A DNA stretch of 40,472 nt from positions 1-40,472 of the IMG/VR virus record IMGVR_UViG_3300027754_000196; one strand, 5' to 3'. Within the stretch, counting starts at the first letter, position 1, and each line of letters begins with the position of its first letter. The notes beneath the pieces are model-generated. The model was not told the origin of the DNA. It saw only the letters and a program-made list of their open reading frames with translations, and did no database searches. Both the position numbers and the translations under genes were made by a program. Positions 1-39,804 of the stretch are shown piece after piece. The stretch comes from a virus.

Positions 1-2768
1 TTTTCAATTTGATCTTGAACTCTACCTTGATTTGCTTGCAATGTATTTTGTGCAGTTGTAGGATCTTCTAAAGTATAACCAGTCATAGATGCATTAACAG
101 AACCTTTAACAGGTCTGAAATCAGCAGTCTTTTGTCCTAAAGCAGCACCAAAGTTTACAAGATCAGGTAAATACCATCCTGGAGTTCCAGGAGGCATTTT
201 TTCCAAAGGCTTTCCAGGTTCAATATCAGCTGCATCTTTAGATGGTTCTTCTTTTGGTTTTTCAATTATTGTTTCAGGTTTTTTATTACGATCAGGATCA
301 AGTCCAAAAAATTGTCTGTTAGCAGTATTACCATAAGTACCAGTTACTTTTGTAATATTTTGTCCTTTGTATGAATCATATGCATCAAGATTACCTGTAT
401 GTCCAACTTTAAAACCAGCATTTCTAAATTGATCTATGTATGCTGGATCATTTGCTACATCGTTTGCTCCCGTATACATTCCTTCAAATAGTTTTATTTG
501 ATCAGGATGCATAGGAGTTGTTATACCTGCACGTTTTGCATAGTCATTATATGTATTATTATATAAACCATTTTTACCTCTTTCATCCCAATCTTTTGTT
601 GAAAGTTCATCTTGTGTATACTTACTATTTAAGATAGTATTTTGTCTTTGTCCTTCCAGCAAAGTTTCAACAGCTTTTTCTTTTGTAGTTTTTTTTGCAA
701 GATCAGGATAATTTTGTTGAAACTTTTTCCACATTGCTTCTCCTAAAGCAGGATTGCTAGTTAACAATTTTTTTAGTTCTTCATAATCCTGTGTATAATC
801 TGGCATTGGTGCAGGTTTTGCAGCAGGTGTCGCAGAAGGTGCTACTGTTACAGTTGCAGGTGCTTTAGCAGCAGTCTCTGCCTGTTTGAAAGCATCGGCA
901 GGGTCTTTGTAAAATCCAGCTGGATTTTGTCCAATTAGATCACCTGTTGATTGGTCTGTCATTTTAGAAGAACCATCATCATAAATAATAAGAGTTCCTA
1001 CTCTACCTGTTTTAGGACTTGTTACTGTAGTTCTTCCTGTTTCTACAGGACCTAAACTTGTACCTGATGTTCCATTGTTTGTAATAATATTTTTAAATTC
1101 TGAAGAAGCTGCTGTAGAACTAACTTGTCCAGAATTTACATTAGATTGATAGTGTGGTAAATCACCACCATACATAAACTCAAAACCATAATCAAAAGAT
1201 GATTGTGCAGGTGCTGTTTGAACTGGCTGAACTTGTTGTACTTGTTTTTGTACTACAGGTCTTTGAGTTACAACTTGTTTTTGAATTACAGGTTCTTTTT
1301 TAACAACTGGTTTTTCTTCAAGTGAACTTTGCATATTTTGCAAACCTTGATCATACTTAGCATTTGTTCTATAGTCTTCTTCTTCTGCTTTATTATAAGT
1401 TTTAGTTCCTTTTTTTTCTGCAAAAGCCTTTACATATTTTATTTGTTGAGGTGTGTATATGTCATATAAACCTTGTTTTCCAGACTCATATCCTTCTACA
1501 TATTTTTTAGAACCAACTTCTTCTAATTTTTGCACCATGTCATATAATTTTTCAGCATGTGCTTTTGCTTTAGATTTTGTAGTTATGTCACCAACTGGAA
1601 TACTTTTATAATACTTATATGCTTGAAGTTGCATATCTTTTAAAGTTTGTGAAAACTCACCTTGTACTTTCTTTTTATAAACCTCTTGATATTTTGTTTT
1701 TTTATCCCATGCAATGTCTTCCCCTTTTTTACGCAAGTCTCCAGCCATGTCTTGAAGTCTATCTTGGTTTGTACCATGTATCCATCCTACACTGTATGGA
1801 ACATCTTCATTTTCTAACATAGAAGCTGCCTTTTCTAACTCTTTTGGATTTTTAGATTTATTAGCTTCTGTATAAGCGTTCCAATAATCAGGAAGTTCTT
1901 TCTTTATATCATTATATGGATATTTTTTTGTGTCTTTTGTCGTTTTAGCAACTGGTTTGGTTTCTGCTTTTGGTTTATTTGGTAATGCTTTAGGAACATC
2001 TTTTGCTGGTTCATCACTACTAAACATATCAGCAAGTTGATTAAAAGTTCCAATTGCAGGAAACATTGTTTCTGCAAATTTACCTGCAACAGGTGCAATC
2101 ACTGACTGACCCCATTGAGCTTTACGCATTGAACCACCACAAGCAGCCTCATTCATTGTTGGAGGAACATCTTGAACTTGTGCAGGAACATCAGGAACAC
2201 CTAAAACTTGTTTAGCAACTTCAGGTCTTCCACCAGGATAACCTTTAACTTCTTCTTGTTTGTCTGCTAATTTAGCAAGTGATTCAGTATTTTTTTGCAA
2301 CATTAATTGTGCTGTACGTTTAGCAAAAGGATCTGCTTCAGCATCCTTAAGTGTATTTACAAATGTATTAATGTCATATTTTTTTGCAACATCAGAAAAA
2401 GAGTAACCTTCTTTTTTAGGTTTCATACCAAAAGCTTCTTGATCTGCTTGTTCTTTCATTTTAAGTTTCTTTGAATAAACAAAAGAACCTTGAGGTATAT
2501 CAACAGGCATTCCACCTTCTGCGTGAGAAGGACCTTTAAATCTAAACTTTTGTAAATTATCTTTTCCAGCAAGTAAAACTTCTTCATCACCTTCAACTTC
2601 AATGGTAGGACGTTTGCCATTTTTCATATCCTCTTCAGTAAGAGAACCCATTGTTTGTTTTACTTTTTCTCTATCTGAAACAGTAGGTACAAATGTACTA
2701 TTTGTAATAAGACCATAATCTGCTTGAGATCCTGTCTTTGGTTTCTTTGTTAACTTAATCTTAAACAT
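1..2768 (-). CDS. Large virion (cargo-like) protein, 3' end outside window
   Basis: An open reading frame of at least 922 codons starts at the ATG at 2768-2766 and runs off the left edge; I read every codon and found no stop. Near the N-terminus (about residues 80-105) is the motif GPSHAEGGMPVDIPQGSFVY, of the SH(A/E)EGG...VFS type that I recall from structural proteins of Bacteroidota phages. The rest is rich in Lys, Gln, Pro and Thr, with coiled-coil-like charged stretches. A QKQV/VQKQ-rich linker (about residues 495-520) is followed by YGGDLPHYQS (about 533-542), which recurs in the next gene upstream. No enzyme motif was recognised. Its place after the muzzle gene and two other large proteins fits crAss-like internal cargo proteins. 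That role is inferred from gene order. Confidence 0.8.
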   Translation of the reverse strand, partial: MFKIKLTKKPKTGSQADYGLITNSTFVPTVSDREKVKQTMGSLTEEDMKNGKRPTIEVEGDEEVLLAGKDNLQKFRFKGPSHAEGGMPVDIPQGSFVYSKKLKMKEQADQEAFGMKPKKEGYSFSDVAKKYDINTFVNTLKDAEADPFAKRTAQLMLQKNTESLAKLADKQEEVKGYPGGRPEVAKQVLGVPDVPAQVQDVPPTMNEAACGGSMRKAQWGQSVIAPVAGKFAETMFPAIGTFNQLADMFSSDEPAKDVPKALPNKPKAETKPVAKTTKDTKKYPYNDIKKELPDYWNAYTEANKSKNPKELEKAASMLENEDVPYSVGWIHGTNQDRLQDMAGDLRKKGEDIAWDKKTKYQEVYKKKVQGEFSQTLKDMQLQAYKYYKSIPVGDITTKSKAKAHAEKLYDMVQKLEEVGSKKYVEGYESGKQGLYDIYTPQQIKYVKAFAEKKGTKTYNKAEEEDYRTNAKYDQGLQNMQSSLEEKPVVKKEPVIQKQVVTQRPVVQKQVQQVQPVQTAPAQSSFDYGFEFMYGGDLPHYQSNVNSGQVSSTAASSEFKNIITNNGTSGTSLGPVETGRTTVTSPKTGRVGTLIIYDDGSSKMTDQSTGDLIGQNPAGFYKDPADAFKQAETAAKAPATVTVAPSATPAAKPAPMPDYTQDYEELKKLLTSNPALGEAMWKKFQQNYPDLAKKTTKEKAVETLLEGQRQNTILNSKYTQDELSTKDWDERGKNGLYNNTYNDYAKRAGITTPMHPDQIKLFEGMYTGANDVANDPAYIDQFRNAGFKVGHTGNLDAYDSYKGQNITKVTGTYGNTANRQFFGLDPDRNKKPETIIEKPKEEPSKDAADIEPGKPLEKMPPGTPGWYLPDLVNFGAALGQKTADFRPVKGSVNASMTGYTLEDPTTAQNTLQANQGRVQDQIE

Positions 2769-2871: not shown

Positions 2872-4458
2872 TTATAAAAATTCTATCTCACCACCATTGG
2901 CAAGTATGTGTCTGATCTGTGCTTCTGTCAATTCATATTCACCACCTTCAGCATATTCCTCCATGTCTCCACCGTGAGTATAGTGAGTAAGATATGCACC
3001 ATAATCATGTATATCACCACCATTTGCCGCTGTATCCATGTAAGTACCTATATCTTGTATTGCACCCATGTTTGGTGTACGTCCTAAAGCATTTTGATCA
3101 TTTACTGTATGCATACCAAAAGAGTTATATGAATTAGTAGATGCAAGTGAATCTGAGTTTCCTGCATCACGCATGTTTTGATTATAAATGTTTTGTTCTT
3201 TTTTTGCACCTATTGTAGAATTTAACATGTCTAATCCATTTAACATGTTCATTGCTACTTGTTTACCTGCAGGATCACCGTTAGTTGTTACGCTATTAGT
3301 TTGAGTTTTAGGTTTTTCCTTGACTACACCTTTGGCAGAACCATCTTGTGTTAAGTTTAAAGTTCTATTATCTAAACTTTTATTAAGATAATTCAACATT
3401 GGATTTGCTGCTGGTACTACTGGTGCTACAACTGTATTCATTCCTTCAGCCATTGGTCCTGCATTATTGTAAGGTATTCCTGAGAAACCACCACCAACAT
3501 TACCTGTACCAATATTACTCTGATGTTGTGGTAAATACATGTGATCAAAATCTACTTCTGCACCATACCCAAATTGTTGAGGTGGTTTAGGTTGTGTAAC
3601 AATAGGTTGTGTAAAAACTGGCATGCCAGGTTGTGGAAAAGGTGCTTGTTTTTGCCATGCAGTTGGATCATTTTGTTGTCCAAAACTTGCTATAGTTGCA
3701 GGTTGTCCAGTTGTAGTTTGTACAGTTTGTCTTCTTTTTGATTCTTCAGGTGAAATTGATGTTTGTTGTCCAGCTTTGTCTGTAGCTAACATTGTTCCTT
3801 TAGGAGCTGCTGCAGTATTTGTTACTTTATCATCAGAGAAAAGTTTTTTAGCACCTAATCCAAAACCACCAATAACTGAAGCCACACCCATTGCACCTTT
3901 TAAAAATCCTTGTGCTCCAGTATTTTTCAATGCCCAGCCCATAGTGTTAGGATTGCCCATAGCATTCATTCCTGCAAGTGTTTGATTAACAGGAGTATCT
4001 TCAAGGTTAGATATCAAGTGATGATCTGTTCTAACAGAATCATTAACATCTTTATAAGGATCACTTAATGTAGAACCATCTGCTAGATTAACATTTCCAG
4101 TAGTTACATCACTTTGATATTGATGAAGTTGACCACCGTAAGCAGCTTGCCCCATTTGTCCCACTTCTCCATCTGTAGTAGGTTGTTGAGACTGAGTAGC
4201 TAATTGTGATGCAGCAGTCATGATTTGTTCTACAACTCCTGCTGCCTGTTCTTGTTTCATACCCATTTTTTGCAATTGTACAAATACATCATGAGCATCA
4301 GCTTTACCTGAAGCAATTGCTTGTACAGCTTGTTGCATAAATGCTTGTTGTGATCCACCTCCATGTGCATCACCACCTGCTTGATATTGTCTTCTATCTG
4401 AGATGTAATGTTGGTAAGCATCTAAGAATTCTCCAAAGTTTTGTGGATCAAAGTTCAT
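2872..4458 (-). CDS. Probable internal virion protein, 528 aa
   Basis: A 528-residue protein, rich in Gln, Gly, Asn and Ala. An N-terminal helical part (about 1-95) is followed by low-complexity sequence, a hydrophobic Gly/Ala stretch (about residues 185-205) and a C-terminus with repeated GG(D/E) patterns ending in ANGGEIEFL. The motif YGGQLHQYQSDVTTGNV (about residue 105) and a relative ending LPQHQSNIGTGNV (about residue 305) resemble a segment of the 922+ codon neighbour. No catalytic motif was seen. It sits between two other large candidate cargo genes, 32 nt after the upstream stop, so co-expression is likely. The cargo role is inferred from context; a scaffold-like internal protein is an alternative. 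Confidence 0.75.
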   Translation of the reverse strand: MNFDPQNFGEFLDAYQHYISDRRQYQAGGDAHGGGSQQAFMQQAVQAIASGKADAHDVFVQLQKMGMKQEQAAGVVEQIMTAASQLATQSQQPTTDGEVGQMGQAAYGGQLHQYQSDVTTGNVNLADGSTLSDPYKDVNDSVRTDHHLISNLEDTPVNQTLAGMNAMGNPNTMGWALKNTGAQGFLKGAMGVASVIGGFGLGAKKLFSDDKVTNTAAAPKGTMLATDKAGQQTSISPEESKRRQTVQTTTGQPATIASFGQQNDPTAWQKQAPFPQPGMPVFTQPIVTQPKPPQQFGYGAEVDFDHMYLPQHQSNIGTGNVGGGFSGIPYNNAGPMAEGMNTVVAPVVPAANPMLNYLNKSLDNRTLNLTQDGSAKGVVKEKPKTQTNSVTTNGDPAGKQVAMNMLNGLDMLNSTIGAKKEQNIYNQNMRDAGNSDSLASTNSYNSFGMHTVNDQNALGRTPNMGAIQDIGTYMDTAANGGDIHDYGAYLTHYTHGGDMEEYAEGGEYELTEAQIRHILANGGEIEFL

Positions 4459-4490: not shown

Positions 4491-7214
4491 TTATCTAAAA
4501 AACTTAAACAAGTCTTCTGTTGAACCACCATTTTTAAATTTTTGCTTATCAAGACTTTCAATTATTTTAGCAGTACCTTTTTGTTTTCCTGAAGTAGTAC
4601 TTTCTAAAATTTGTTGTAACTTGTTTTTACGTTCTGCATAAGACTCAGGAAGCTTTCCATGTATTTGTGCAAATTTTAATTCTTCATCTGTAAAACCTGA
4701 ATATTTTTTTAAAATGTTATCTTGTAATGTTTTCATTTTTTCATCATAAACATCCATTAGTTTTTTCTCTAATATACTTTTATGATTTTTACCTAAGTCT
4801 GCAGCGTCATACATATAAGGATTTGTTTGACCTTGTACATTGAGATCCCACCAGTCACCTTTGACTTTACCTTTGTTTTGAGAAAAAGGTTCAAAATCAA
4901 AAACATTTACTTTTCCATCTGGTCTAACAGACATGTTACCATTACCAAAATAATCAAATGATAAACCTTGATCTCTTAATATTTTTTGTTTTTGAATAAG
5001 GTCTTCCATTGTTTGTGGATTGTCTACCCATTTTTCAAATTCTTTTCTTGACATATTTTCAAAACTTTTTCCTTCAAGTTTTGGCATTATTAAACCTCTA
5101 CTAGTGTCATTAAAATTAAGTTGATTATATGTTTTTGCAAAACCTTGATTGTCTGGTAAATACTTAGTAGCTTCAACAGCATCAAAATCCATGTACTCTG
5201 GTAAACCTGATCTTTTTGCTATCATGTCAGGATTTTCAAATTTTATAACATGATCAGGAAATTGTTTTAGTTGAAAGATTCCTTGATTAAAAGCACCGTT
5301 ATTTCCTGCAAGTTTTTGACCCATTAAGTAACCAGAAAAATTATCAGTGTTAATGTCCTCAACAGAATGTATTCCTTTATAAGGATTATACAATTCTTCA
5401 TGTCCTCTCCACCAATGTGGTTTTCCACCATACACTGTCATATCTGCAGCAGGAACATTGTTTACAATCATACCTGTTTCTGGATCTATGACTCTATGTG
5501 CATAATGTCTACCTTTAATTTGTCGACCTGTAACAGGATTAAGATCTCCTCTTTTAAATGTCGGCAAATCAGTTTGAAAAATTACACCTCCTTCTTCAGG
5601 CATGTATCTTAAGTCAGCATAACCTTTTTGAAAAGAAGGAAAACTTGTAGGTCTTGCCATGTTTAAACCTTCGCTTGATATGTTTTCTGGAATTTGAGAT
5701 CTAAGTACCGCAGATTCTAACATATCATCATAGTTATCTGTACCAGCTACTCTATATGACATTTCTGGATTGTCAAATTTACTTATTGCTTTTGGATTAA
5801 GATTGTGAGCTTTAGATAACAACCCTGTTTCTGTTCCTAATGCTTTCTTAATTGCACCAGAATATGGAACTTTTAGACCAGCTGCAGGATTAATAATGTT
5901 ATTTACAAATTGTCTGTTAGTTGCAGATCCTAAACCTGCTAATGCTCCCATAGCTAAAGGTGCACCAATACTTGTTAAGTAAGGCATATAAGAATCTGTT
6001 TCTTTAGCTTTCTTAGGAGCTTCTCCTAATGCTTTTGCCATACTACCAATCCATACTGCAGGATTAAGATAGTCATCAAAAAGATTGTCTTCTTGTGAAA
6101 CTCTAAACTTTGCATCCAGTGATTCTGCTTCTTTTGCTAAATGGTCTCTATAACTTTCACCTGGTAATCCAGTAAACTGATTGTATTTAGGATTGTCAAA
6201 GCGTTTTTCATAATCACTCAAAGATTTAACTCTTTGATCTTTACGAGCATCTGCTTCTTTTTGATTTCTTACTTTTCTTTCATCCCAGGACTCATAGTCT
6301 AATTCACCATTGTCCATCATTTGTTGAGCTTCACTCATATTTTTAGGAAGCTTTTGTTTTGGAATTGTTAATGTTTTACCCAACGCATCCCAACCTTTTT
6401 GTTGTTCTGGTGATATGTTATTACTGTTTAATGGTTTTGCTTGTTTGTTTAAAACTGCAGAACGTTTTCCAGTAGGATCTTTGATCTCTACAAAGTTACC
6501 ATGAGTGTCGTCATTTTGAATATGCCATTTACCATTTACATTTTTGTATTGTGAATCAGGTCTTCCAGAAAAGGTATACACCTGATCTCCACCATATTGT
6601 GCTTTTGGTAATGATTTTGTTTTTGCAAGTTTACCAAACATCTCATCATAGTCATACATCATTGATCCAGTTGTACCACCTTCTTGAAAAGTATGTCTTA
6701 CACCAACGCCAAAAGATGGATTAATGCTTTCACTGTTGCGTGATGCACCAACATTAAAATTTATACTTGTGTTATTAGATAAAGGTTTATCATATCCTAC
6801 TTTTACCTTTTGCATAGCAGGAAATTCATTGCCTTTAAATAAAGGTGTTTGACTTTCTAAACCAAGACTAAAGTTTTTATGATACATATCTGCCCCCATT
6901 CCTAAAACAGAAGTATCAGGTTGTGTCTGAAACTGATAAGCATATGGATGTAAACTATTCGATGATTCTTCTTCATCGTGTGGTAAAGGAATTTCTAAAA
7001 TAGGACCTTTGCCAAAATTGTAATTATTACCTGGTTTCATAACTACTTGACTACCATTTGGTTTAATAGCAAGAATTGATTGTTCCAATGGTGTACCATC
7101 GTCTTCCTTCATAGTGATCTTACCAGAAGGTATGATGTTCATAGGATTGTTTCTATCAGGGCTATTTTTCTTATAACCCATCATAGAAACATATTTTAAA
7201 AAGTCGTTTTCCAT
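4491..7214 (-). CDS. Large cargo-like protein with ART-like and kinase-like domains
   Basis: A 907-residue protein. The N-terminus (1-180) looks beta-rich and includes SFGVGVRHTF. It is followed by LPKAQYGG (202-209), a charged helical region (about 290-370) and a hydrophobic Ala/Gly segment (about 410-430). Residues 485-610 have features of an ADP-ribosyltransferase fold: R488 in YRVAG, S524 in TSFPSFQKG, and E606/E607 in WWRGHEEL. Residues 627-775 resemble a protein kinase: Gly-rich segment, K658 in VIKFEN, hinge-like LIMPKLEG (708-715), D754 and N760 in a catalytic-loop-like segment, and D773 in VFDFEP. N760 to D773 is 13 residues, as in protein kinases, but D754 is one residue off the usual D-to-N spacing. 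The start overlaps the muzzle stop (TAATG), implying coupled translation. Activities are inferred, not shown. Confidence 0.8.
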   Translation of the reverse strand: MENDFLKYVSMMGYKKNSPDRNNPMNIIPSGKITMKEDDGTPLEQSILAIKPNGSQVVMKPGNNYNFGKGPILEIPLPHDEEESSNSLHPYAYQFQTQPDTSVLGMGADMYHKNFSLGLESQTPLFKGNEFPAMQKVKVGYDKPLSNNTSINFNVGASRNSESINPSFGVGVRHTFQEGGTTGSMMYDYDEMFGKLAKTKSLPKAQYGGDQVYTFSGRPDSQYKNVNGKWHIQNDDTHGNFVEIKDPTGKRSAVLNKQAKPLNSNNISPEQQKGWDALGKTLTIPKQKLPKNMSEAQQMMDNGELDYESWDERKVRNQKEADARKDQRVKSLSDYEKRFDNPKYNQFTGLPGESYRDHLAKEAESLDAKFRVSQEDNLFDDYLNPAVWIGSMAKALGEAPKKAKETDSYMPYLTSIGAPLAMGALAGLGSATNRQFVNNIINPAAGLKVPYSGAIKKALGTETGLLSKAHNLNPKAISKFDNPEMSYRVAGTDNYDDMLESAVLRSQIPENISSEGLNMARPTSFPSFQKGYADLRYMPEEGGVIFQTDLPTFKRGDLNPVTGRQIKGRHYAHRVIDPETGMIVNNVPAADMTVYGGKPHWWRGHEELYNPYKGIHSVEDINTDNFSGYLMGQKLAGNNGAFNQGIFQLKQFPDHVIKFENPDMIAKRSGLPEYMDFDAVEATKYLPDNQGFAKTYNQLNFNDTSRGLIMPKLEGKSFENMSRKEFEKWVDNPQTMEDLIQKQKILRDQGLSFDYFGNGNMSVRPDGKVNVFDFEPFSQNKGKVKGDWWDLNVQGQTNPYMYDAADLGKNHKSILEKKLMDVYDEKMKTLQDNILKKYSGFTDEELKFAQIHGKLPESYAERKNKLQQILESTTSGKQKGTAKIIESLDKQKFKNGGSTEDLFKFFR

Positions 7215-10200
7215 TATCTTGTACTTGCTAAAAGTTTAACATTAACCAGTTTCAGAATCATCTTCTTGTCCCCACTAACTAATTTACGCAAAATTACTCT
7301 GTTAGCAAAATGTCTAAACTTTTTGCGTTCTACAGCAGGTTTTGTGTAATCAATTGCACTTGGATTTAAGACTCTTCTAAATCCAGCACAGTCTGTCATC
7401 CAAATAGGAATTTTTACTCCTGTAAATTCACCTCTATCTTTTGTAACGTCCCAGAACTGATTGAATCTATACTTTTGTTCTTCTTTAGAATATATGATAC
7501 CAATACCATTCAAACCTATTTGAGGATAGTTGACAACATGTAATGGTGAGTTTTTACCTTGTGTAATAAGTTTTAGAATACCTGATACTTGCTCTGAGTT
7601 AAATACAATTGCTCTATCAAAGTTTTCATCTAACAGGTGATGGAAGTCATCCCCATTGTTATAGTACTTCACAGTATCTAAAAAGTATTCAACGTTTCTT
7701 ATACTGTTTACAGCATTTGGAGTAACAACAGGAAACTCAACTTCCCAAGGATAATCAGTACCATAATAATTACAGTAACTATTCCAAGTACTATTGTGTC
7801 TCCATATACCTCTATTCTTCATTGTGAAGAAATGTTTATAAGAAGGCATTGCTAGTTGTGGTATCCATTCATGAAATGACACAAACATTTTTGTTTTTGG
7901 ATCATAACTAATAGTCCATGAACAATCTTGCCATGATGCTGTATCAGAAAATGGTACAAATCTTTTTACATGAGTATCAGTTATAAAATAAGGTATGCCT
8001 GATATGTCATCAAATAAAAATGCTTCAGGTCTTAAAGGCATGTAATCCTTTTTTGTAAAGTATATAATTTCATATTGGGCATCATATACTGCTTGACATC
8101 CAATACCAATAACAGGATTGTCATATAACTCGCAATCAGGAAAAGCTGTAAGAAGTTTTGACGGCAAGTGTTCCATGAACCAATACTTCATTCCATTTCT
8201 AGAAATCTCATCTAAACTTCCACCATTAGATTGTAATATTTTACCAGCTTTTTGTGAGATATAAAATAAACCAAATGGAGTATTGACAGCAGATCTTGAG
8301 CTTATACATGATCCATATTCTAAAACGTCATCTGCATTAGCAAGACTTTGCATGTTTTGTGCAAATAGACCACCATCTCCAATTGTAACTTTCACACCTC
8401 CAGTTGTTTGTAATTGATCTACACCAACAAAGTTAACAGGTTCAGCATCTTCAAAAAGGATTATAGCACCTGTTGCATTCATTGCTTTTATAGAACAAAT
8501 TTTACCCTTGAAGTCTTTATAGTTTAAAGGTAAAAAGTTTCTCCAGTTATCACGTTTTAAACCTGATTGTTGTTGTAAAGAATAAATAACTCTATCAGGA
8601 TAATACTCAAAACAAGAAGAATATATCTTTGGATCATAATCTTTTTGTAAAATAGCACCCCAAGTTGTAAAGTTGTTATATAACTTTGATGCACTTAATG
8701 ATAAGTCATACTTGAAGAATGTTGGTTTTATGATAAGATCTGATCTAAACATTAAGTTTGTATCATTAAAAGAGTTACCATAAGGATCATAAAACTTTTG
8801 AGTAGTATCTTCACCATAGTCTCTGTAAGCAAGATTGAATTCTGACTCACAAAAGAAATCTCGTACTCCATTTGCAGATAAATACATGTAAGCCCACTTA
8901 ACTGCAAGTACACCATGTTTACCGTTTCTATCAAATCTATGAAAATCACTTGGTGAAGTAAGCTTAAAACTTTTTAAAGTTTTGAAAAATCCCTTTTTTT
9001 CTTTTGCTTTTGCTGAGTTTCCATCGTCATCATCTTCAGCAGCATTATCTGTACCAGCATCACCTCCTCCGACAGCACCAAAACCTAAATCATCAAGATC
9101 AAACTTTTCAAAGTTAGCCCAGTATCTTGGCAATGGTCCATTAATGTAAGTTCTATAGTCAAATTCAGTAGCGTCAAGTTCTCCCATTAACCACGTATCA
9201 AAAAACATATATGCATTTTTTTCTGTATATCTGTTTATGTATGTGTCACCTCCAAAAATCACTGGTGATTCTGTTCCTGAATTTACACAAGATGCAACAG
9301 GAACTTGTATAATAGAACCTAACTGTCCATACTGATTATCATAGTCCATTTTGATAGCACCATAATAAGCAACACTTGTTGTTTGAAATTCTTTAGTTAC
9401 ATTACCTTCTTTATAACTCATACCCATGTTTGCTAAAGTAGCTTTTGAATTATCAGTTGTAGATACTGGGTTTGCTACATCAGCTTTAAGTTCTAAAGCA
9501 ACATACTTAGTTCTATAAAGATTATTGATTCTATAACTAGCATCAAAATCATGAATTCCAGAACCAATGTATTTTATTTTAGAAGGTTTAACTTCTCTTA
9601 TTATAGAAGGTGCACTTGTATAGGGAGCCGATGCAGCATTTGCAACACTTGCTGACTCTCTGTAAAAACCATGACTATTTAGTTGTAAAACATATTGACG
9701 TTTTTTACTAATTCTTCTTACTGTTTCTAAAACCTTATCTGTACCTTGTCCAGCAAAATACATAAAATTTGCAGCAAAAACTACAGCTCCCATTATTAAA
9801 CCAGCAATACCTTTAATGTTGGTAATGTTACCAGCAATAGTGTCCAGGATAGCACTACCTTCTCCAGCTCCACGACCACCTGTTTGCTGTGTACCAGCTA
9901 AACCAAAGAAAGAAACATCTTCAGTTGACTGCGTTGAAGAAGAACCAAGTGCTGCAACTAATCCAATACCAATACCACATACTGCTGCTGCAATAAATGC
10001 ACCGTCTGTAATCATAACATACTTTGGATGTCTATAAGGAAATTGAAATTGATTTGAAACCGTTGCTTGTTGTTCTTTGTATAGTTTTACAAAATTATTA
10101 CCAATGTATGGTTTTGCAAAAGTTGTTTCAGGAGAATGAAAAGAAAACATATCTTTTCTATATGTTGTCAAGTTTGCTCCTGCTGAATCATTTTCACCAC

Positions 10201-11962
10201 CCTGTAATATATGGGCATCATAATCTTCAGTTCTAACAAGAAATGGATCTGGTCTTAAATCATTATATGGGTAGTTTTGAAACAATCCTTTTTTGGTAAG
10301 ATTTGTTTTTCTTAGTTTGTATTCCCATATGTTATTAAACATTCCTTTTGCTACAATGCTTTTGTTACCTTCTCGTGAACCTCTAAGTATCTCATAACCA
10401 ATGATTTCAGATATAACAGCACCAGTTGAGTCTACAGGTTTGGCAATATTAGAAAACTTAACACCTAATATTTTTATACTATCAGTGTTTAAACCTGCTA
10501 CTTCATGAATGTGTGTAGTTTCATTTGACGGCATCTTATGGTGTCTAACATTTTTTCCACACAAATCTCCCCAGATTTCTGGTTTATCATTTGGATACTT
10601 TTCAGTAGACTCCCAATAAGCCATGTTACCTTTGTTTACAAACTGTCCAACACCGTCATCAGCAGTTCCAGATAGAAATCCAGATGTTGAAGTGTCATAA
10701 ACTTGCCATGCTTTGTTTTTTGAATAAACAACATCTGCAGTATTTACTATTACTAAGTCTGAAGCAACAGCAGCTCTACCAGGAATATGATATGATGCAG
10801 ATCTTGCACCAGTGTTGTATACCCATCTTATAAAAAAAGAATATACTTCATCTCTTAGATAACTCACATGATGTCCACCATTCCAATAGTAATCTGAATC
10901 ATATTTAACAGCAACCCATTCAGTTTTTATTTTGTTTGCTAATGGTTGATAGTTAATTACAGGCTCAGTTGTTAAACCAGATCTAATCAAGTAATTGTTA
11001 AGAGTAAACATTTTATCACTCTTGTCATAAATTACTGATTTCAAAGGTAAAATTCTCATGTCAACAGTAGTCAAACTTAGCAGTATAACATCTAAATTAA
11101 TCTTTGTACTATTTACACCAGCATTGTGTGTTATAGAGTAATTACCTATTTTTTTAGCAGACGCGTTTTGATTTACAGTTTGTACTATAACTAATTCAAA
11201 CTCATTAAAGTTTGTGTCTAAACCTGAAACAGTAATGTCTATAGAACCACCAACGCCAGTATGATCCCACAAAGGTTGTGGAGCACTTGGCATTGAATAA
11301 TCTGTAAGTTTTATACCATTTTCACTATATGCAATTAAAGCAACATAACTTCCATTTTGCAATTGACCAGCTCCTTGTGACCTTGTTACATTTACACATG
11401 GTTGTTTTACAATTGGATGAAGTCTTAATTTGTTACAATCAAGTTCGGTAGTATAATGTGGTTCATAGCAATCTGGATCTAAATTTGAGTCACCATCAAC
11501 TTTGTAATATTCTTGAGTCTTGTCAAGATTTAATGTTCTATCATAGTTTAAACCATCTTGAAAGTATACTGAAAAGGTACAATCGTAGTTTTCTTTTACA
11601 ATAGCCGTTATAAGATGTGAAAGTTTGAAGCCAAGACATTTATCATTTACAGATTTTGTATATGAACAATCCTTTTCATCAAAGATTCCAATTTCAGAGT
11701 TTACATTATCACCAGAAAACATAACGTACCTAGTGTCACGTATGTGAGCATACCCAAGTATTGTATAAGGTAGTGTTGTACAAAGTTGATTTGAAGGTTC
11801 ATTTCCTAATGTACCACCATCACCAATGTGAGAATTGTTTATAGCATTAATAGCATTATGCCACATACCATCAGTTAAGAACAATTCATTATTATCCTTA
11901 ACCATTCCTTTGCCAAAAGTACTTGTTTCAGCACTGGTTGTATTAGTAAATCCTGTTGCCAT
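7214..11962 (-). CDS. Muzzle-type giant tail protein
   Basis: A 1582-residue protein. Its N-terminus, with FGKGMVKDNN, an N/W-rich segment (about 30-40), GNEPSNQ and later NSEIGIFDE, matches my recollection of the conserved crAss-like muzzle protein (also called stabilization protein), which forms the distal tail tube. The body is mostly beta-rich with many aromatic residues. Two hydrophobic segments lie at about residues 648-675 and 716-740. They flank a Gly/Ser/Thr-rich loop and could be membrane-active or held inside the tail. A very acidic linker (about 985-1000, rich in D and E) follows. It begins 8 nt after the 387-aa ring-protein gene, consistent with a tail assembly operon, and its stop overlaps the next start. 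The family call rests on length, N-terminal pattern and gene order. Confidence 0.8.
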   Translation of the reverse strand: MATGFTNTTSAETSTFGKGMVKDNNELFLTDGMWHNAINAINNSHIGDGGTLGNEPSNQLCTTLPYTILGYAHIRDTRYVMFSGDNVNSEIGIFDEKDCSYTKSVNDKCLGFKLSHLITAIVKENYDCTFSVYFQDGLNYDRTLNLDKTQEYYKVDGDSNLDPDCYEPHYTTELDCNKLRLHPIVKQPCVNVTRSQGAGQLQNGSYVALIAYSENGIKLTDYSMPSAPQPLWDHTGVGGSIDITVSGLDTNFNEFELVIVQTVNQNASAKKIGNYSITHNAGVNSTKINLDVILLSLTTVDMRILPLKSVIYDKSDKMFTLNNYLIRSGLTTEPVINYQPLANKIKTEWVAVKYDSDYYWNGGHHVSYLRDEVYSFFIRWVYNTGARSASYHIPGRAAVASDLVIVNTADVVYSKNKAWQVYDTSTSGFLSGTADDGVGQFVNKGNMAYWESTEKYPNDKPEIWGDLCGKNVRHHKMPSNETTHIHEVAGLNTDSIKILGVKFSNIAKPVDSTGAVISEIIGYEILRGSREGNKSIVAKGMFNNIWEYKLRKTNLTKKGLFQNYPYNDLRPDPFLVRTEDYDAHILQGGENDSAGANLTTYRKDMFSFHSPETTFAKPYIGNNFVKLYKEQQATVSNQFQFPYRHPKYVMITDGAFIAAAVCGIGIGLVAALGSSSTQSTEDVSFFGLAGTQQTGGRGAGEGSAILDTIAGNITNIKGIAGLIMGAVVFAANFMYFAGQGTDKVLETVRRISKKRQYVLQLNSHGFYRESASVANAASAPYTSAPSIIREVKPSKIKYIGSGIHDFDASYRINNLYRTKYVALELKADVANPVSTTDNSKATLANMGMSYKEGNVTKEFQTTSVAYYGAIKMDYDNQYGQLGSIIQVPVASCVNSGTESPVIFGGDTYINRYTEKNAYMFFDTWLMGELDATEFDYRTYINGPLPRYWANFEKFDLDDLGFGAVGGGDAGTDNAAEDDDDGNSAKAKEKKGFFKTLKSFKLTSPSDFHRFDRNGKHGVLAVKWAYMYLSANGVRDFFCESEFNLAYRDYGEDTTQKFYDPYGNSFNDTNLMFRSDLIIKPTFFKYDLSLSASKLYNNFTTWGAILQKDYDPKIYSSCFEYYPDRVIYSLQQQSGLKRDNWRNFLPLNYKDFKGKICSIKAMNATGAIILFEDAEPVNFVGVDQLQTTGGVKVTIGDGGLFAQNMQSLANADDVLEYGSCISSRSAVNTPFGLFYISQKAGKILQSNGGSLDEISRNGMKYWFMEHLPSKLLTAFPDCELYDNPVIGIGCQAVYDAQYEIIYFTKKDYMPLRPEAFLFDDISGIPYFITDTHVKRFVPFSDTASWQDCSWTISYDPKTKMFVSFHEWIPQLAMPSYKHFFTMKNRGIWRHNSTWNSYCNYYGTDYPWEVEFPVVTPNAVNSIRNVEYFLDTVKYYNNGDDFHHLLDENFDRAIVFNSEQVSGILKLITQGKNSPLHVVNYPQIGLNGIGIIYSKEEQKYRFNQFWDVTKDRGEFTGVKIPIWMTDCAGFRRVLNPSAIDYTKPAVERKKFRHFANRVILRKLVSGDKKMILKLVNVKLLASTR

Positions 11963-15841: not shown

Positions 15842-18508
15842 TTAATCAAGTATAAAATGCAAACTGTCAATAGTAAATGAAAAACCACCTACTTGATTAT
15901 AATCACCTCCATCACATGTAATTAACCATTTTCCTAAAGATGAAGTATCAGCATCTAACGGTGAGTTAACATTTCCTGTACCTGCTCCATCAAAAGATGT
16001 TGTTGCAGCATTCCATTTAGTTACAAAATCACCTTCTCTTACATTACAAATTATTGGTCTCATTGTTGAACCACCATTTAATGTAGTACTTGTACCAAGA
16101 GGTTGTTCTACATCTTGAACAGTGCCAATGTATAGAGCACCATTTGACATAATGTATAAACTAAAAACTGTAGACAAAGATGCTCCGTAAGAAGTAGTAC
16201 CTGATATAAGTTTTGTTGTAGCATTTACAACAGCTCCACCAGAGAGTGAGTTAAGTCTAGTTTGACGTTGTGCTATGATGACACCACCAAAAGCTGTTCT
16301 GCTATTAAAACTTGGCTGAACACCATTACACCATAATGCTGTAGGTAAACATGTAGTATTGTTTTTAAAATACAGACCCCCATTTGGATTTAGAGTTACA
16401 CCTCCTGTTCCTGTATAAGGAGCAACTGCAGCAATATCAGCGTAGCCATTTGTACTAGCATATGAGCCAGCACCTAAAACTATAGCAGTGCTACCACCAG
16501 TTGTTGGATTTGCCAGAGGTATTGTAACGGCTCCTCTAAAAAATATTTGTTTACCAATTCTTCTAACTTGTGGCTTATTATTATCTAGAGTACCTAAATG
16601 AGTAAATCCTAAAAGATCTAACCATCCTGAATCATTGTTTGTTATTTCAACAGTAATACCTGTCGATGAAACTTCTGTTTCTGTATTAAATTCACAATTT
16701 CCTACTATGTCTACGTAACTTGGTCCATTACACACATAATTAGTAGAAAGTAATGCATTATTGCCACCATCAAATGTTTTAATTGCAAGACCTCCAAATG
16801 GACATGGTCCAGGCACAGGATGCTCCCCATCCCCAAAACTAGTAGTAGGTGCAGGTGATACAGTTACATAATCACCATTTTTTGGATTGCAAAGTTTTAA
16901 AGGTGTACCTACTAATTCATCATCTACACCAGAACGTGTTTCAACAAGAATTCCTCCATAAAGACAAATTGGATCTGAACCTGGTGCTATATAGTTTGTT
17001 ACAATATAGTTTCCATCTAAACCTGGATTAACATAGTTTATTGCAAAGTTTTGATCAGTAAGAGTGATGCTACCACTAGATGCAATTAACGCCATGTTAA
17101 ATGTGTGATAATTAGCAACATGTGTACTACTTATAACTCTGAAAATTGCAAAGACGTCAGAGTTATTTACATCTGTTATCTGTACTCTTGCATTTGTGTC
17201 AATAGAGCTTAACCATGTTGCTGCATTACCAATACTTGCTACAGCACCAGTATAACCCAACATTGATGTTTCATTTAAAATCAGAGTATTTACAAGAGCA
17301 AGATTACCATTGTTTAAAACGGCTTTACCTGGTGCTGTTACTGTACTAGAGTTGCATTCATAAACTAAAGTGTTTGGACCAACTGCTCCTTTTGCACCAT
17401 CAGTTCCATTGCTACCAGCAAAACCTCTATCACCTTTTAGGGTAAAAGAAACTGATATATCACTTCCAGTTATAAATGTTCCTGAACCTGCTACTAAATT
17501 TACTTCAAAAATATGTGATGTGTTTGTAGAGTTACTAAGAATTCTCCAAACCTCATAAATACCAAAAATAGTACTATTTAAAGAATTGTATAACTGTATT
17601 CTATCACCAACAACTACAGATTCTAACCAGGCATTTGCATTACTCAATATAGGATTAACCATACCATAATAACCAACTCTTGATGTATTACTTGCAGTTA
17701 CACGAGTTACTGATGTAGCTTGTAAAGCATTTACAACTACATTACCTGGTGCATCCACTCCCATTTTATAAATGATTGAGTTTGAACCTGGAGAACCTTG
17801 ACTTCCATCATCCCCTGGATCACCTGCTGGTCCTACTACATAACCTGCATCAAATACTGAAGCATCTGATTTAGTTATAATTAAGTGACCTGCTCCATTG
17901 ATAACACCAGATGTAATACCAACACCTTGATTACCTTGAAGTCCTACATCACCTCTTGGTATTGTAAAGTTAAAACGTTTTACACTTGGTGTACTTGACG
18001 GATCTAATGTGACAATGGCACTTGTTCCAGGTGCTCCTGTTGAAACATTAAAGGGTGTAACATTAGGTGAAACACCATCATTACCAGAAGGCAATCTAAA
18101 TTGAAGACTATATGTTCCTGGACTAACTAGTGTACTAGTAACAATAGGAGGTAAACTAGGTGTTGCAATTTGCACCGCTGGTGTTATTAGAAGTACAGGT
18201 GGTGGACCAGGAAGTCCTGGTGTACCTGGGGCTCCTACAAAACCTCCTGCACATATTTGAGCATATAAGTTTTGAATCAAGGGTGTTAAACCAAGCCCTG
18301 TATTAACAAGTGTTTGTGAACCACAAGTAATTGGTGCACCATTGTACACAACACAGTTTGTGTAAACCGTTTCTAAACAGGGTGTTCCTGTAGAACATGG
18401 TACTAATGCAGGTAATTCTGAAGGATTACACGATGCACATTGGGATAACCCATTGCATTCTGCACATCCTGTACCAGTTCCTGCTATTACAAAATCTTCT
18501 TGAGCCAT
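15842..18508 (-). CDS. Collagen-like tail fibre protein, 888 aa
   Basis: An 888-residue fibre. The Cys-rich N-terminus (1-95) has CxxC patterns and CVVYNGAPITCG, shared with the 660-aa fibre and probably the virion-docking end. Collagen-like Gly-X-Y runs occur around 94-105 (GAPGTPGLPGPP), 185-195, 226-240 and 362-382. Two copies of a beta module of about 115 residues follow the third and fourth runs (about 243-360 and 383-495), each with a phrase like (I/V)F(G/A)I(Y/F). The C-terminal half is Thr/Gly/Asn-rich beta sequence ending in FTIDSLHFILD, a likely host-contact tip. It is the last gene of the fibre cluster, followed by a terminator. Receptor binding is inferred. Confidence 0.88.
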   Translation of the reverse strand: MAQEDFVIAGTGTGCAECNGLSQCASCNPSELPALVPCSTGTPCLETVYTNCVVYNGAPITCGSQTLVNTGLGLTPLIQNLYAQICAGGFVGAPGTPGLPGPPPVLLITPAVQIATPSLPPIVTSTLVSPGTYSLQFRLPSGNDGVSPNVTPFNVSTGAPGTSAIVTLDPSSTPSVKRFNFTIPRGDVGLQGNQGVGITSGVINGAGHLIITKSDASVFDAGYVVGPAGDPGDDGSQGSPGSNSIIYKMGVDAPGNVVVNALQATSVTRVTASNTSRVGYYGMVNPILSNANAWLESVVVGDRIQLYNSLNSTIFGIYEVWRILSNSTNTSHIFEVNLVAGSGTFITGSDISVSFTLKGDRGFAGSNGTDGAKGAVGPNTLVYECNSSTVTAPGKAVLNNGNLALVNTLILNETSMLGYTGAVASIGNAATWLSSIDTNARVQITDVNNSDVFAIFRVISSTHVANYHTFNMALIASSGSITLTDQNFAINYVNPGLDGNYIVTNYIAPGSDPICLYGGILVETRSGVDDELVGTPLKLCNPKNGDYVTVSPAPTTSFGDGEHPVPGPCPFGGLAIKTFDGGNNALLSTNYVCNGPSYVDIVGNCEFNTETEVSSTGITVEITNNDSGWLDLLGFTHLGTLDNNKPQVRRIGKQIFFRGAVTIPLANPTTGGSTAIVLGAGSYASTNGYADIAAVAPYTGTGGVTLNPNGGLYFKNNTTCLPTALWCNGVQPSFNSRTAFGGVIIAQRQTRLNSLSGGAVVNATTKLISGTTSYGASLSTVFSLYIMSNGALYIGTVQDVEQPLGTSTTLNGGSTMRPIICNVREGDFVTKWNAATTSFDGAGTGNVNSPLDADTSSLGKWLITCDGGDYNQVGGFSFTIDSLHFILD

Positions 18509-18528: not shown

Positions 18529-19740
18529 TTAATAATTTTTTACAAGTCTAACAGATAAGCCATTTCCTATATAATCACTGTTACTGTAAAAAATACCAGA
18601 GTCATAGTTTAGGATACGGGCTGCACCAAGGTCTACACCGTCTTGTGTAGAACTCCACCAGCGACCTTGATTACCTATTTGGTAGAAACCTCCTACAAAG
18701 TTAACCCAACCACCTGGAAGTCCTGTAAAACATGAACTATTAGTAGCATCTGTGTTTGGAGCATTCCATAGCGTTGTTCCAACTTGTTTCATTTTACCTC
18801 CAGCAACACTTGCTCCACCTAACTCACCTTGAAGAGATGACCATTCAGGACTTGTTGGTACATGCCACCCTACAGGAGCTAGTCCTCTTGAATCATTTAC
18901 AGCATACCAATTGTACAATTTGCCATATATTGCCCCATTTGCTGGATCATTGTTATAATAACGCCATGCTCCTGTAGTCAATGCTTGCCATACGGCAGGA
19001 TCTGTTACTTGAGGAATTACCTCTCCATTTCTATAAGTAGATACGTTTAAATTTTGACAACTCCAAATTTGTGTACCAATTGACACTTCTCCAGCAACAC
19101 ATTGACAGTCTTCTATAAACCTAACAGACAACCCGTTTTTCTTAAGGTTGTAGTTTTTGTCTGCACCGCCACTGTTGTTGTTCAGGTAGCGGAGCCAAGC
19201 AAAGTTTGTATCTTTCTCCGTAGAACTCCACCAGTGACCGTAGTCACCAATGCCGATGCAATTTCCAATGCTGTTGCGGGCACCGCCTGGAAGACCTGTG
19301 AATAAAGATGTATTAGTTGCATCTGTATTAGGAGTATTCCAATGACATAATCCAACTTCTTTCATTTTTCCTCCAGCAATAGTTAAACCACCTAGATAAT
19401 TTGTTAAAACCGTCCATTCTTCATCTGTTGGAAGATGACAACTAACTGGAGCTAATCCACCATGCACTGTATCATTGATGGCATACCAGTTATAGAGTTT
19501 ACCATAAATCGGACCATTTGCTGGATCGTTGTTATACCAACACCATGCTCCTGTTGTAAGTGCAGCCCAAGTACTTGGATCTGTTACTTCAGGAATTGGC
19601 GTACCATCTCTATATGTTGTAACATTTGCGTTACATGTTTTCCACCGTTGCGTTCCTATTAAAACAGAAGTTTCTGTACAATTTGGACACAAATCTGAAA
19701 TAGTTGCTGTGCGATAAACGTTTTTCTTAAAATCTTTCAT
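18529..19740 (-). CDS. Tandem FISUMP-domain protein (adhesin-like fibre or tip)
   Basis: A 403-residue protein made of two copies of the Fibrobacter succinogenes major paralogous (FISUMP) domain at about 25-210 and 216-401. Both have IGTQ.W, T.YR.G..IP.VTDP, WY/YYNNDPANG, IYGKLYNWYA, AGGKMK.VG, NTDATN, FTGLPGG, WWSST and a closing GLSVR. No signal peptide is seen; residues 1-20 are a short lead with CPNC. It sits between two collagen-like fibre genes (6 nt after the upstream one, 20 nt before the next), so it probably decorates or forms a tip of the tail fibres. Part of the first copy is unusually GC-rich for this genome. Receptor or glycan binding is inferred; FISUMP function is not well established. 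Confidence 0.88.
   Translation of the reverse strand: MKDFKKNVYRTATISDLCPNCTETSVLIGTQRWKTCNANVTTYRDGTPIPEVTDPSTWAALTTGAWCWYNNDPANGPIYGKLYNWYAINDTVHGGLAPVSCHLPTDEEWTVLTNYLGGLTIAGGKMKEVGLCHWNTPNTDATNTSLFTGLPGGARNSIGNCIGIGDYGHWWSSTEKDTNFAWLRYLNNNSGGADKNYNLKKNGLSVRFIEDCQCVAGEVSIGTQIWSCQNLNVSTYRNGEVIPQVTDPAVWQALTTGAWRYYNNDPANGAIYGKLYNWYAVNDSRGLAPVGWHVPTSPEWSSLQGELGGASVAGGKMKQVGTTLWNAPNTDATNSSCFTGLPGGWVNFVGGFYQIGNQGRWWSSTQDGVDLGAARILNYDSGIFYSNSDYIGNGLSVRLVKNY
18540..19680 (-). repeat. Tandem duplication encoding two FISUMP domains
   Basis: The coding sequence holds a direct duplication of roughly 560 bases, seen most clearly as repeated protein blocks (NNDPANG, GKLYNWYA, AGGKMK, NTDATN, TGLPGG, WWSST). 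The copies have diverged in sequence and base composition, so the duplication is not recent or the copies have different sources. Boundaries are approximate. Confidence 0.75.
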
Positions 19741-19745
19741 ATATC

Positions 19746-21728
19746 TTATGCTTTGGTGTTACCTAATAAGTAATATGTAGAAGTAGCAAGTTTTCTTTCA
19801 ATAAAAGTTTGATATCCTTGACCTTTGCTTTTAAGTCCTATTGGATTTGATAACCCAGTACCTACAAAAGTTACATCTGCTGAACCTTCTTGTATAAAAC
19901 CTACACAAAAGTTTGCTTTTGTTATTGCTCCTAAAGTTATAGTAACAGGTGTTGCTCCATTGTTAATAAAAATTGTGTAATCATCATCAGCATTTGTTAA
20001 TGTATAATTAGTTGTTATTTCTTTTTGTAAAGTTACATCAACTAAATCACTTATTAATACTTTTGCATGTAAAGTTGTTGATGCATCATAAAACATTAAG
20101 TAATCACCAGAAGGATCTACTACCGCTTGTGATAAGTCATTAATAGTTCCCCAATCAGCCCTTCCATCATTCGCTTTAGCCATTAGTAATTTTGTATCAG
20201 CATCAGCTGCAGCAGCTACAATTCTCAAAGGATAATTGTACAAACCATTAAGTGCTTGAAATTCACCACCAAAATTTGTTGCTGTTGTTGATACAAAATC
20301 TGCAATACCTTGAGTACCAATGTTTAAAAGGGCATTATTAGAAGCATATCCTGATATACCAATATTTGAATTTACTGTACCAATTCCAGACGCTGTTCCT
20401 TTTACACCAACTGATGAAAATCCTGGTGTAGCATTTACAGCAGTTGTTCTAAACCAACCTGCTCCAATATGAGTACTACTTTCTACTTTGAAAAAATTAA
20501 ATGTTGAGAAAGCAGCAATACCTACTGTAACAGCATTACCATTATCTTTAATCAAACTGTCACCTAAATGCATTCCATCAGGTGTCCATTTTGCAACAGT
20601 ATTTAAAGTTCCTGAACCAAAGTCGTATAGTACACTTCCTGCATTATAAACAGTTGAGTTAGATAGTGTTATGATTAAATCACCAATACCATTTATAAGT
20701 GCCCCAGAAACATATGAACCATTACTCCCAGGTGTGCCAGCTAATCCATCTTTGCCCATCAAAAGATATGATGTAGCAAATTCCTTATATATAGCAGATA
20801 CACCATTTGTTGTAACTGGTACAACTGTAAACTTTATACCATGAATAGAAGGTTCTGCTAATTTTGCAGTAATTTTATAAATTCCAAAAATAGTTGGATC
20901 TGTTGTATCATATATTTGCAAGTAATCATTTATACCAGGTGTACTTACCCATGATAAAGCTTGACCAAGTGGAAACAATGTTGGAGAACCTTGTTGCATC
21001 GATGTGTCACTAATCTTTATTTGAGTTACTGCAGAAAGTGTTTGAGAATTTATTTCAAGTCTACCTCTTCCTAAAGTGCCAGATGTCAAAATACCATTTA
21101 CATAGTATAAACTGTTTGAACCAGCTCTTCCATCTATGCCATCTATACCATCAACTCCTGGAAGTCCTTGAGGACCAAGTACACTTCCTGCATCTATAAC
21201 GGTTGCATCTGTTTTAGTTATGATCAGATGTCCTGAACCATTTACTACAACACTTCCTATACCAATACCATTTGTACCATTTGTACCTGGATTTCCTCTA
21301 GGAATTGTAACATTTAAAAGTACATTTGTTAAAGTGCTACCAACTGCAAGAGCAACAAGAGCATTTGTACCTGGTGCACCATTGAAAGTATTAGCAATTG
21401 TAATACTTGGTGTTACACCATTTGTACCAGAAGGTCCTGTTGGACCTGTAGGTCCTGTAACACTTGGTCCTGGAGGTCCTGTGGGTCCTGTTGCTCCAGT
21501 AAATCCTCCAGCACATATTGCTGTTAATATTTTTGTTAAGATACTTGTAAGTATTTCACCTGTTGCAATTGTTATTGCTCCACAAGCAAAAGGTGCACCT
21601 TGATAAACAACACATGTTGTACCTATAAAATCTAAACATGGTGTTCCACCAGCACAGTTTACAGGTGTAATAACTGTTTGAGTAGGGGTGCAATCAGCAC
21701 AAGATCTACAATCAAAATTTGGATACAT
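19746..21728 (-). CDS. Collagen-like tail fibre protein, 660 aa
   Basis: A 660-residue fibre with a Cys-rich N-terminus (1-75: CRSCADC, CAGGTPCLDF, CVVYQGAPFACG, ICAGGF) closely parallel to the 888-aa fibre. Collagen-like Gly-X-Y runs follow (about 76-100, 145-155, 181-200, 322-333). One copy of the beta module present twice in the 888-aa protein lies at about 203-320. The middle (about 370-500) is beta-rich. The last 100 residues have a common phage tail-fibre C-terminal pattern: YTLTNADDDYTIFINNGATP, FIQEGSADVTFVG and a final YYLLGNTKA. It is 11 nt downstream of the FnIII-like fibre gene. Likely a trimeric, receptor-contacting fibre; this is inferred from composition. Confidence 0.88.
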   Translation of the reverse strand: MYPNFDCRSCADCTPTQTVITPVNCAGGTPCLDFIGTTCVVYQGAPFACGAITIATGEILTSILTKILTAICAGGFTGATGPTGPPGPSVTGPTGPTGPSGTNGVTPSITIANTFNGAPGTNALVALAVGSTLTNVLLNVTIPRGNPGTNGTNGIGIGSVVVNGSGHLIITKTDATVIDAGSVLGPQGLPGVDGIDGIDGRAGSNSLYYVNGILTSGTLGRGRLEINSQTLSAVTQIKISDTSMQQGSPTLFPLGQALSWVSTPGINDYLQIYDTTDPTIFGIYKITAKLAEPSIHGIKFTVVPVTTNGVSAIYKEFATSYLLMGKDGLAGTPGSNGSYVSGALINGIGDLIITLSNSTVYNAGSVLYDFGSGTLNTVAKWTPDGMHLGDSLIKDNGNAVTVGIAAFSTFNFFKVESSTHIGAGWFRTTAVNATPGFSSVGVKGTASGIGTVNSNIGISGYASNNALLNIGTQGIADFVSTTATNFGGEFQALNGLYNYPLRIVAAAADADTKLLMAKANDGRADWGTINDLSQAVVDPSGDYLMFYDASTTLHAKVLISDLVDVTLQKEITTNYTLTNADDDYTIFINNGATPVTITLGAITKANFCVGFIQEGSADVTFVGTGLSNPIGLKSKGQGYQTFIERKLATSTYYLLGNTKA

Positions 21729-39626: not shown

Positions 39627-39728
39627 TACTCATATTGTTGGTTTAATGTGGAGCCCCCTTCTTGTACAGACTGTATATCTTTTGCAGTTTGTTGATATTT
39701 TGAAGGATACAATTAGCAGGGGCATTTG

Positions 39729-39804
39729 AGGCTGTGATGGGATTTGAACCCACGATCTCTGAGGTGCACTTCTCAGCGAGATAACCAGACTTCTCTACAC
39801 AGCA
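39729..39804 (-). tRNA. tRNA gene with 8-nt anticodon loop, identity undetermined
   Basis: Read on the minus strand. The acceptor is TGCTGTG with CACAGCC, six pairs plus a T-C mismatch at position 1:72. Position 8 is T. The D stem is GAGA/TCTC with GG and A21 in the loop. The anticodon stem is CTGAG/CTCAG, followed by a 5-nt variable loop and the T arm GTGGG-TTCAAAT-CCCAT. Every arm folds, but the anticodon loop is 8 nt (AAGTGCAC, 39771-39764) and lacks U33 in the usual place, so the identity is unsure; GTG (His), TGC (Ala) or GCA (Cys) can be read. The CCA end is not encoded. It may be a degenerate tRNA or a deliberately altered one. It lies between two small genes. Confidence 0.75.

What the first reader, a model, noticed from the sequence alone, without database searches (positions are those of the whole stretch)
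4491..7214. Cargo-like protein with ART-like and kinase-like domains in tandem
After the muzzle gene lies a 907-aa protein with an R-S-E type layout (R488, S524, E606/E607) as in ADP-ribosyltransferases. It is followed by K658, a hinge-like segment, D754/N760 and D773, as in protein kinases; K658 to D773 spans 115 residues, near the kinase norm of about 112. Proteins encoded here in crAss-like phages are packaged and ejected. Two possible host-modifying enzymes in one ejected protein would be a way of controlling the cell from the first minute, like T4 Alt but with a kinase added. The D754 position is one residue off, so activity is uncertain.
Basis: partly seen in the sequence, partly recalled or inferred. 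Interest (0 to 1): 0.7.

Follow-up and report, generated by a model that had tools for sequence, protein, structure and literature searches.

The report
Swappable enzyme cassettes in phage cargo
Next to its tail-tip gene, a crAss-like water phage carries a large protein, probably shot into the host with its DNA, whose tail end joins a minimal protein kinase to an ADP-ribosyltransferase-shaped domain; sister phages carry quite different enzymes in the same slot, so the slot looks like a plug-in site for early weapons.

Summary
The 907-aa ORF is real, on the minus strand (7214..4491), right after the muzzle gene. The kinase half holds up: a profile of six related cargo proteins, built without this one, ranks it first (E 1.1e-5; next best 0.13), hhalign gives 89% probability with K658, D754, N760 and D773 in register, and the family's best PDB matches are the minimal effector kinases NleH1, OspG and NleH2. 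The 'one residue off' loop is a family trait.

The ADP-ribosyltransferase (ART) half is partly right. A 160-aa model (pLDDT 74) resembles ART folds (best Z 6.9) and R488 is invariant in seven homologues. S524 and E606/E607 are not conserved, and E606/E607 lie in an inter-module linker that also precedes kinases lacking an ART. An invariant RHxAHR motif sits nearby. Activity is unproven.

The larger finding: this gene slot is polymorphic. Sister phages almost identical up to a TPLKN junction carry different cassettes after it: this ART plus a peptidase, kinase plus another ART, SET plus peptidase. Best reading: a polyvalent-type ejected effector with exchangeable C-terminal cassettes. Packaging and catalysis are inferred. 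The kinase could not be modelled (tool switched off).

The parts
4491..7214 (-). 907-aa cargo-like protein P0001, whole gene
   Evidence: Intact ORF, ATG start, overlaps the muzzle stop
6975..7208 (-). conserved N-terminal domain, aa 3-80, shared by many muzzle-adjacent cargo proteins
   Evidence: phmmer to relatives, e.g. L106 E 2e-13 for the domain
5844..6326 (-). conserved pre-cassette segment, aa 297-457, mildly hydrophobic at aa 410-431
   Evidence: 36-59% identity to relatives; hydropathy maximum 1.32 over 19 residues at aa 413
5415..5783 (-). ART-fold-like module, aa 478-600; invariant R488, S527, R569-H570, H573-R574
   Evidence: Alignment A4, model pLDDT 74, fold comparison
5379..5429 (-). 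inter-module linker, aa 596-612, with the KPHWWRGHEEL motif that holds E606/E607
   Evidence: Same motif in front of kinases without an ART in L148 and L191; stricter pattern in 16 of 96 cargo proteins and 1 of 813 other ORFs
4845..5327 (-). minimal kinase-like module, aa 630-790; K658, D754, N760, D773
   Evidence: Leave-one-out profile E 1.1e-5; hhalign 88.6%; PDB profile matches NleH1, OspG type, NleH2
4494..4844 (-). C-terminal tail, aa 791-907, ending in FKNGGSTEDLFKFFR; no relative found
   Evidence: phmmer of aa 800-907 finds no relative
7214..11962 (-). muzzle gene (gp44-like), upstream neighbour
   Evidence: BLASTP to gp44 E 6e-8; PHROG 37948 E 2e-64
2872..4458 (-). next gene, 528 aa, in the position of gp46 (534 aa); GG-rich
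   Evidence: Gene order and size; no detectable homology to gp46
3..2768 (-). third gene, at least 922 aa, runs off the window; in the position of gp47
   Evidence: Gene order only

Best explanation
The gene encodes a polyvalent-type virion cargo protein of a crAss-like phage. A conserved N-terminal part and pre-cassette segment would hold it in, or thread it through, the virion. Its C-terminal cassette, here an ART-fold domain followed by a minimal NleH/OspG-type kinase, would refold in the host at the start of infection. The kinase would phosphorylate host proteins. The ART-fold domain would bind NAD or a nucleotide and modify a host molecule, or be a degenerate relative. The cassette is exchangeable between sister phages at the junction before it. 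Shown here: modular architecture, cassette exchange, kinase-family membership, position after the muzzle. Moderately supported: ART fold. Inferred: packaging, ejection, catalysis, targets.
For: Cassette exchange: L143 and L148 share 596/600 residues at the muzzle end and 104/110 before the junction, then 26/136. Kinase family: leave-one-out E 1.1e-5, hhalign 88.6% with control at 0.5%, NleH1/OspG/NleH2 as best PDB profile matches. ART fold: model pLDDT 74 and a second-look list dominated by ART-superfamily chains; R488 invariant. Context: gene after the muzzle, as gp45 (PMC10172136); known enzyme classes in sister slots: PF03496 E 1.5e-12, SET, SLT, HExxH in 32/96 cargo proteins against 13/813 other ORFs.
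Against: No virion proteomics; no sequence homology to gp45. ART Z values are below 8 and Foldseek has no hit below E 0.5; no conserved Glu at the proposed site. No kinase model. The leave-one-out set was partly collected with profiles that included P0001.
Confidence: 0.6

Rival explanations
1. It is mainly a channel or ejection protein in the gp45 role; the C-terminal domains are inactive relics or act only as folded plugs.
For: Same gene slot as gp45, for which channel formation is proposed; the ART-like module lacks a conserved Glu; a mildly hydrophobic segment lies at aa 410-431.
Against: Kinase catalytic residues D754, N760 and D773 are invariant across very divergent relatives, and other cassettes in the slot are recognisable enzymes; plugs would not need this.
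Confidence: 0.2
2. One reading: a canonical R-S-E ART (R488, S524, E606/E607), like T4 Alt, with a kinase added.
For: R488 invariant and ART-like fold; kinase-family membership.
Against: S524 and E606/E607 vary, and E606/E607 belong to a general linker.
Confidence: 0.05
3. The product is not packaged but made late and acts inside the cell, for instance against co-infecting phages or in lysis control.
For: No virion data exist for this phage; in polymorphic toxin systems cassettes act in other settings (own knowledge).
Against: Gene order with virion cargo genes and a conserved carrier part shared by the whole slot family.
Confidence: 0.12

Closest known systems
Polyvalent proteins of phages and conjugative elements (Iyer et al. 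2017, PMC5512222)
   Same: Large multidomain phage proteins with ART, kinase and peptidase domains, proposed to be injected; cassette recombination proposed for one locus.
   Different: The described Kinase-PolyVal family (PF18762) does not match; crAss phages are not mentioned; here the carrier is tied to the muzzle-adjacent slot.
phiCrAss001 cargo protein C1, gp45 (PMC10172136)
   Same: Gene directly after the muzzle, similar size (842 against 907 aa).
   Different: No detectable sequence homology; no enzyme domain is reported for gp45 in the passages read.
NleH1/NleH2/OspG effector kinases
   Same: Best PDB profile matches of the kinase family; aligned at the catalytic Asp-Asn and final Asp, with no HRD His.
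   Different: Those are type III secretion effectors; weak similarity (E about 1e-3); activity and activation untested here.
T4 Alt
   Same: Functional analogy: packaged, injected host-modifying enzyme (PMC5512222).
   Different: No sequence relation shown; the active site differs; a kinase is added; the protein is modular and polymorphic.
MuF-type polymorphic toxins of temperate phages (PMC5576092, listed; paper not read)
   Same: Constant carrier with variable C-terminal toxin domains on phages (own knowledge of the paper).
   Different: A crAss-like lytic lineage, a different carrier, a slot behind the muzzle gene, likely aimed at the phage's own host.

Membership tests
Protein kinase superfamily (minimal, NleH/OspG-like) | Sequence-profile similarity to known kinases | tested here: met
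   Six-member family profile: NleH1 2.1e-4, OspG type 1.1e-3, NleH2 1.2e-3; P0001 belongs to that family, E 1.1e-5
Protein kinase superfamily (minimal, NleH/OspG-like) | Conserved Lys, catalytic Asp-Asn and metal-binding Asp | tested here: met
   K658 is Lys in 5 of 7; D754, N760 and D773 invariant
Protein kinase superfamily (minimal, NleH/OspG-like) | Bilobal kinase fold | not tested
Protein kinase superfamily (minimal, NleH/OspG-like) | Kinase activity | not testable with these tools
   Needs a biochemical assay
Kinase-PolyVal (PF18762) | Match to the curated Pfam model | tested here: not met
   No match at E <= 1 in the window or 16 related records; none by hmmscan of the seven members
ART superfamily | ART fold | tested here: inconclusive
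   Model pLDDT 74; nearly all top second-look rows are ART chains, but Z is at most 6.9 and Foldseek E at least 0.58
ART superfamily | Conserved Arg (or His) on the first strand | tested here: met
   R488 invariant in seven homologues
ART superfamily (R-S-E clade) | Ser at 524 and Glu at 606/607 as proposed | tested here: not met
   Columns vary; E606/E607 lie in a linker
ART superfamily | Profile match to a curated ART family | tested here: not met
   No Pfam match; hhalign to the canonical ART of L141 0.2%
Polyvalent proteins | Phage multidomain protein with several catalytic domains of the described classes | tested here: met
   ART-like plus kinase in P0001; ART-PolyVal-like domain (27.4 bits, below its cut-off of 31.2) in sister L148; peptidase motifs in sisters
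Crassvirus virion cargo (gp45 slot) | Gene directly after the muzzle gene | tested here: met
Crassvirus virion cargo (gp45 slot) | Sequence homology to gp45 | tested here: not met
   phmmer E 0.25 at best
Crassvirus virion cargo (gp45 slot) | Present in the virion and ejected | not testable with these tools
   Needs virion proteomics of an isolate

The most novel reading that the evidence does not exclude
Environmental crAss-like phages keep a dedicated, recombining effector slot behind the muzzle gene: an ejected carrier with a constant front and exchangeable C-terminal enzyme cassettes (ART-like, minimal kinase, metallopeptidase, SET), a phage counterpart of polymorphic toxins used against the phage's own host in the first minutes. 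Within it, the ART-fold module with an invariant RHxAHR motif and no Glu at the expected site is a new ART-like family with unusual chemistry.
Probability: 0.45. Interest if true: 0.75.

Novelty: new variant of a known kind. Interest (0 to 1): 0.6.

Why it matters
Crassviruses are abundant, and their known cargo is read as channel parts or RNA polymerase. A fixed slot with exchangeable enzymes would show what they do to the host at entry, make host targets testable cassette by cassette, and provide a family of phage minimal kinases and an unusual ART-fold family.

Tried and rejected
E606/E607 as the ART Glu: rejected by homologues and by the linker's occurrence without an ART. S524 as the ART Ser: rejected; S527 is the invariant one. 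Kinase-PolyVal membership: no match. Link of the ART module to the canonical ART of sister L141 by hhalign: none, 0.2%. Link to the wider cargo 'YRxxG' group (A10): 96%, but only over the first 57 columns, half of it the shared pre-linker, so not used as proof. My iterated ART profile drifted through these linkers and pulled in kinase-only proteins, so its member count is not used. Direct searches with the whole protein or its C-terminal 312 aa in viral contigs and phages: no relatives; with the kinase region alone in phages: only chance-level hits, E 4 or more. Cellular genomes: no relatives of the pre-cassette segment or of the ART module. The first kinase alignments put the Lys at the wrong place; fixed once more relatives were found. 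Overall GG enrichment: weak (1.42-fold in cargo against 1.33-fold in controls); only the context-specific motif stands out. Cargo 3 against the gp45 portal-bound domain: no support.

Full report
Observation. The window is a 40,472-base virus record. Its major capsid protein matches phiCrAss001 gp32 (phmmer E 1e-8) and Leptolyngbya and Cellulophaga phages. The muzzle matches gp44 (E 6e-8). In phiCrAss001 the order is gp44 muzzle, gp45 cargo C1 (842 aa), gp46 cargo C2 (534 aa), gp47; here it is muzzle, 907 aa, 528 aa and a long open frame. gp45 and gp46 are virion cargo and gp45 is proposed to be ejected first (PMC10172136). P0001 itself has no sequence similarity to gp45, so 'cargo' rests on position and on the family described next.

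Finding relatives. The protein alone matches nothing in Pfam, PHROGs, PDB, INPHARED or by pattern in viral contigs. Via the capsid protein I reached 80 related IMG/VR contigs. Searching 48 of these records showed that aa 3-80 and aa 297-457 are shared with large cargo proteins, while the C-terminal half is not. Two further scans, with the pre-cassette segment and with the muzzle C-terminus, gave 96 distinct genes that directly follow a muzzle gene.

Cassette exchange. What follows the pre-cassette segment differs from phage to phage. L143 and L148 have muzzle C-termini identical at 596 of 600 positions and cargo proteins identical at 104 of 110 positions up to TTKTPLKN (94% at the DNA level over the last 300 bases), then 26 of 136. 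L143 continues with the same ART-like module as P0001 plus an HExxH domain; L148 continues with a kinase-like module plus an ART-PolyVal-like domain (27.4 bits, cut-off 31.2). L145 and L147 show the same pattern (107/110, then 31/129). Other slots hold a canonical exoenzyme ART (PF03496, E 1.5e-12), SLT transglycosylase and SET domains. HExxH occurs in 32 of 96 of these proteins and in 13 of 813 other ORFs. In P0001 the two modules that are alternatives in L143 and L148 sit in tandem.

Kinase module. L148 and L137/L139 showed kinase motifs; a profile then added L220, L191, L226/L227 and L244. A profile of the six others, without P0001, scores P0001 at E 1.1e-5 (23 bits for aa 648-788), against 0.13 for the best of 2,000 local shuffles and 0.4 for the best of 5,192 other ORFs; hhalign gives 88.6%, E 2.6e-6, against 0.5% for a control pair. 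The set was partly collected with profiles that included P0001, which inflates this somewhat; L148 was seen by eye before that. The same six-member profile has NleH1 (2.1e-4), an OspG-type effector kinase (1.1e-3) and NleH2 (1.2e-3) as its three best PDB matches; with P0001 included most matches are kinases.

ART-like module. Seven homologues align over about 160 residues, one a stand-alone 305-aa protein (L157). The AlphaFold2 model has mean pLDDT 73.9, with a core near 85. Foldseek has no significant hit (best E 0.58). The second-look aligner places LT-IIb A (Z 6.9), Tpt1 (6.5, rmsd 2.7 over 78 residues), cholera toxin A1, TreX/TreTu, pertussis S1, DarT1 and pierisin among the top rows, with CC0527 (a DUF952-type protein, own knowledge) as the main other entry. 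Z under 8 can be a common arrangement, so I rate the fold as likely, not proven. R488 is invariant and, judged only from the start of the aligned ranges, falls at Arg7 of the toxin A chains. S524, E606 and E607 vary. The motif around E606/E607 is a linker found before kinases with no ART in front (L148, L191). Invariant candidates for an active site are R488, S527 and R569-H570/H573-R574. No profile link to a canonical ART was found.

Interpretation. The best reading is a polyvalent-type, probably ejected carrier with an exchangeable C-terminal cassette. Its kinase is likely active by motif; its ART-like partner is either an unusual enzyme, perhaps Tpt1-like, or degenerate. Packaging, ejection, catalysis and targets are inferred. 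The kind is known in outline (polyvalent proteins, PMC5512222; packaged ARTs, PMC9503650), but the word crAss occurs in neither paper, and I found no paper in the held library that describes cassette exchange in crassvirus cargo. I therefore file it as a new variant of a known kind.

Noticed in passing
muzzle-adjacent cargo proteins of L082-L244; P0001 aa 176 and 893: A short motif [MYF][QKAE]xGG occurs 286 times in 96 cargo proteins against a shuffle mean of 21 (maximum 30), often between modules; 440 against 80 in other ORFs, where the richest appear to be neighbouring cargo genes. It could be a processing site or a packaging tag.
   Followed up: partly
L157:5845-6759, L158:5845-6759: A stand-alone 305-aa version of the ART-like module followed by a hydrophobic region, possibly a free cassette.
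   Followed up: no
L132, L134, L138, L152, L156 cargo C-termini: A small domain (ITMEGVPYDVLGISDTGDTKLMKPGKNYKFKGKKVTEFPMAKNG) resembling aa 27-80 of P0001 recurs at C-termini as well as N-termini of cargo proteins.
   Followed up: no
window 39728-39804 (-): ARAGORN reports a tRNA of unknown type with a four-base anticodon (gtgc).
   Followed up: no
window 18529-19740 (-): A 403-aa protein made of two tandem repeats (GTQ.W...N...TYR.G..IP.VTDP..W..LTTGAW..YNNDPANG.IYGKLYNWYA) with WWSST motifs, like FISUMP-type surface domains (own knowledge).
   Followed up: no
window 15842-18508 and 19746-21728 (-): Large proteins with collagen-like Gly-X-Y runs, probably tail or head fibres.
   Followed up: no
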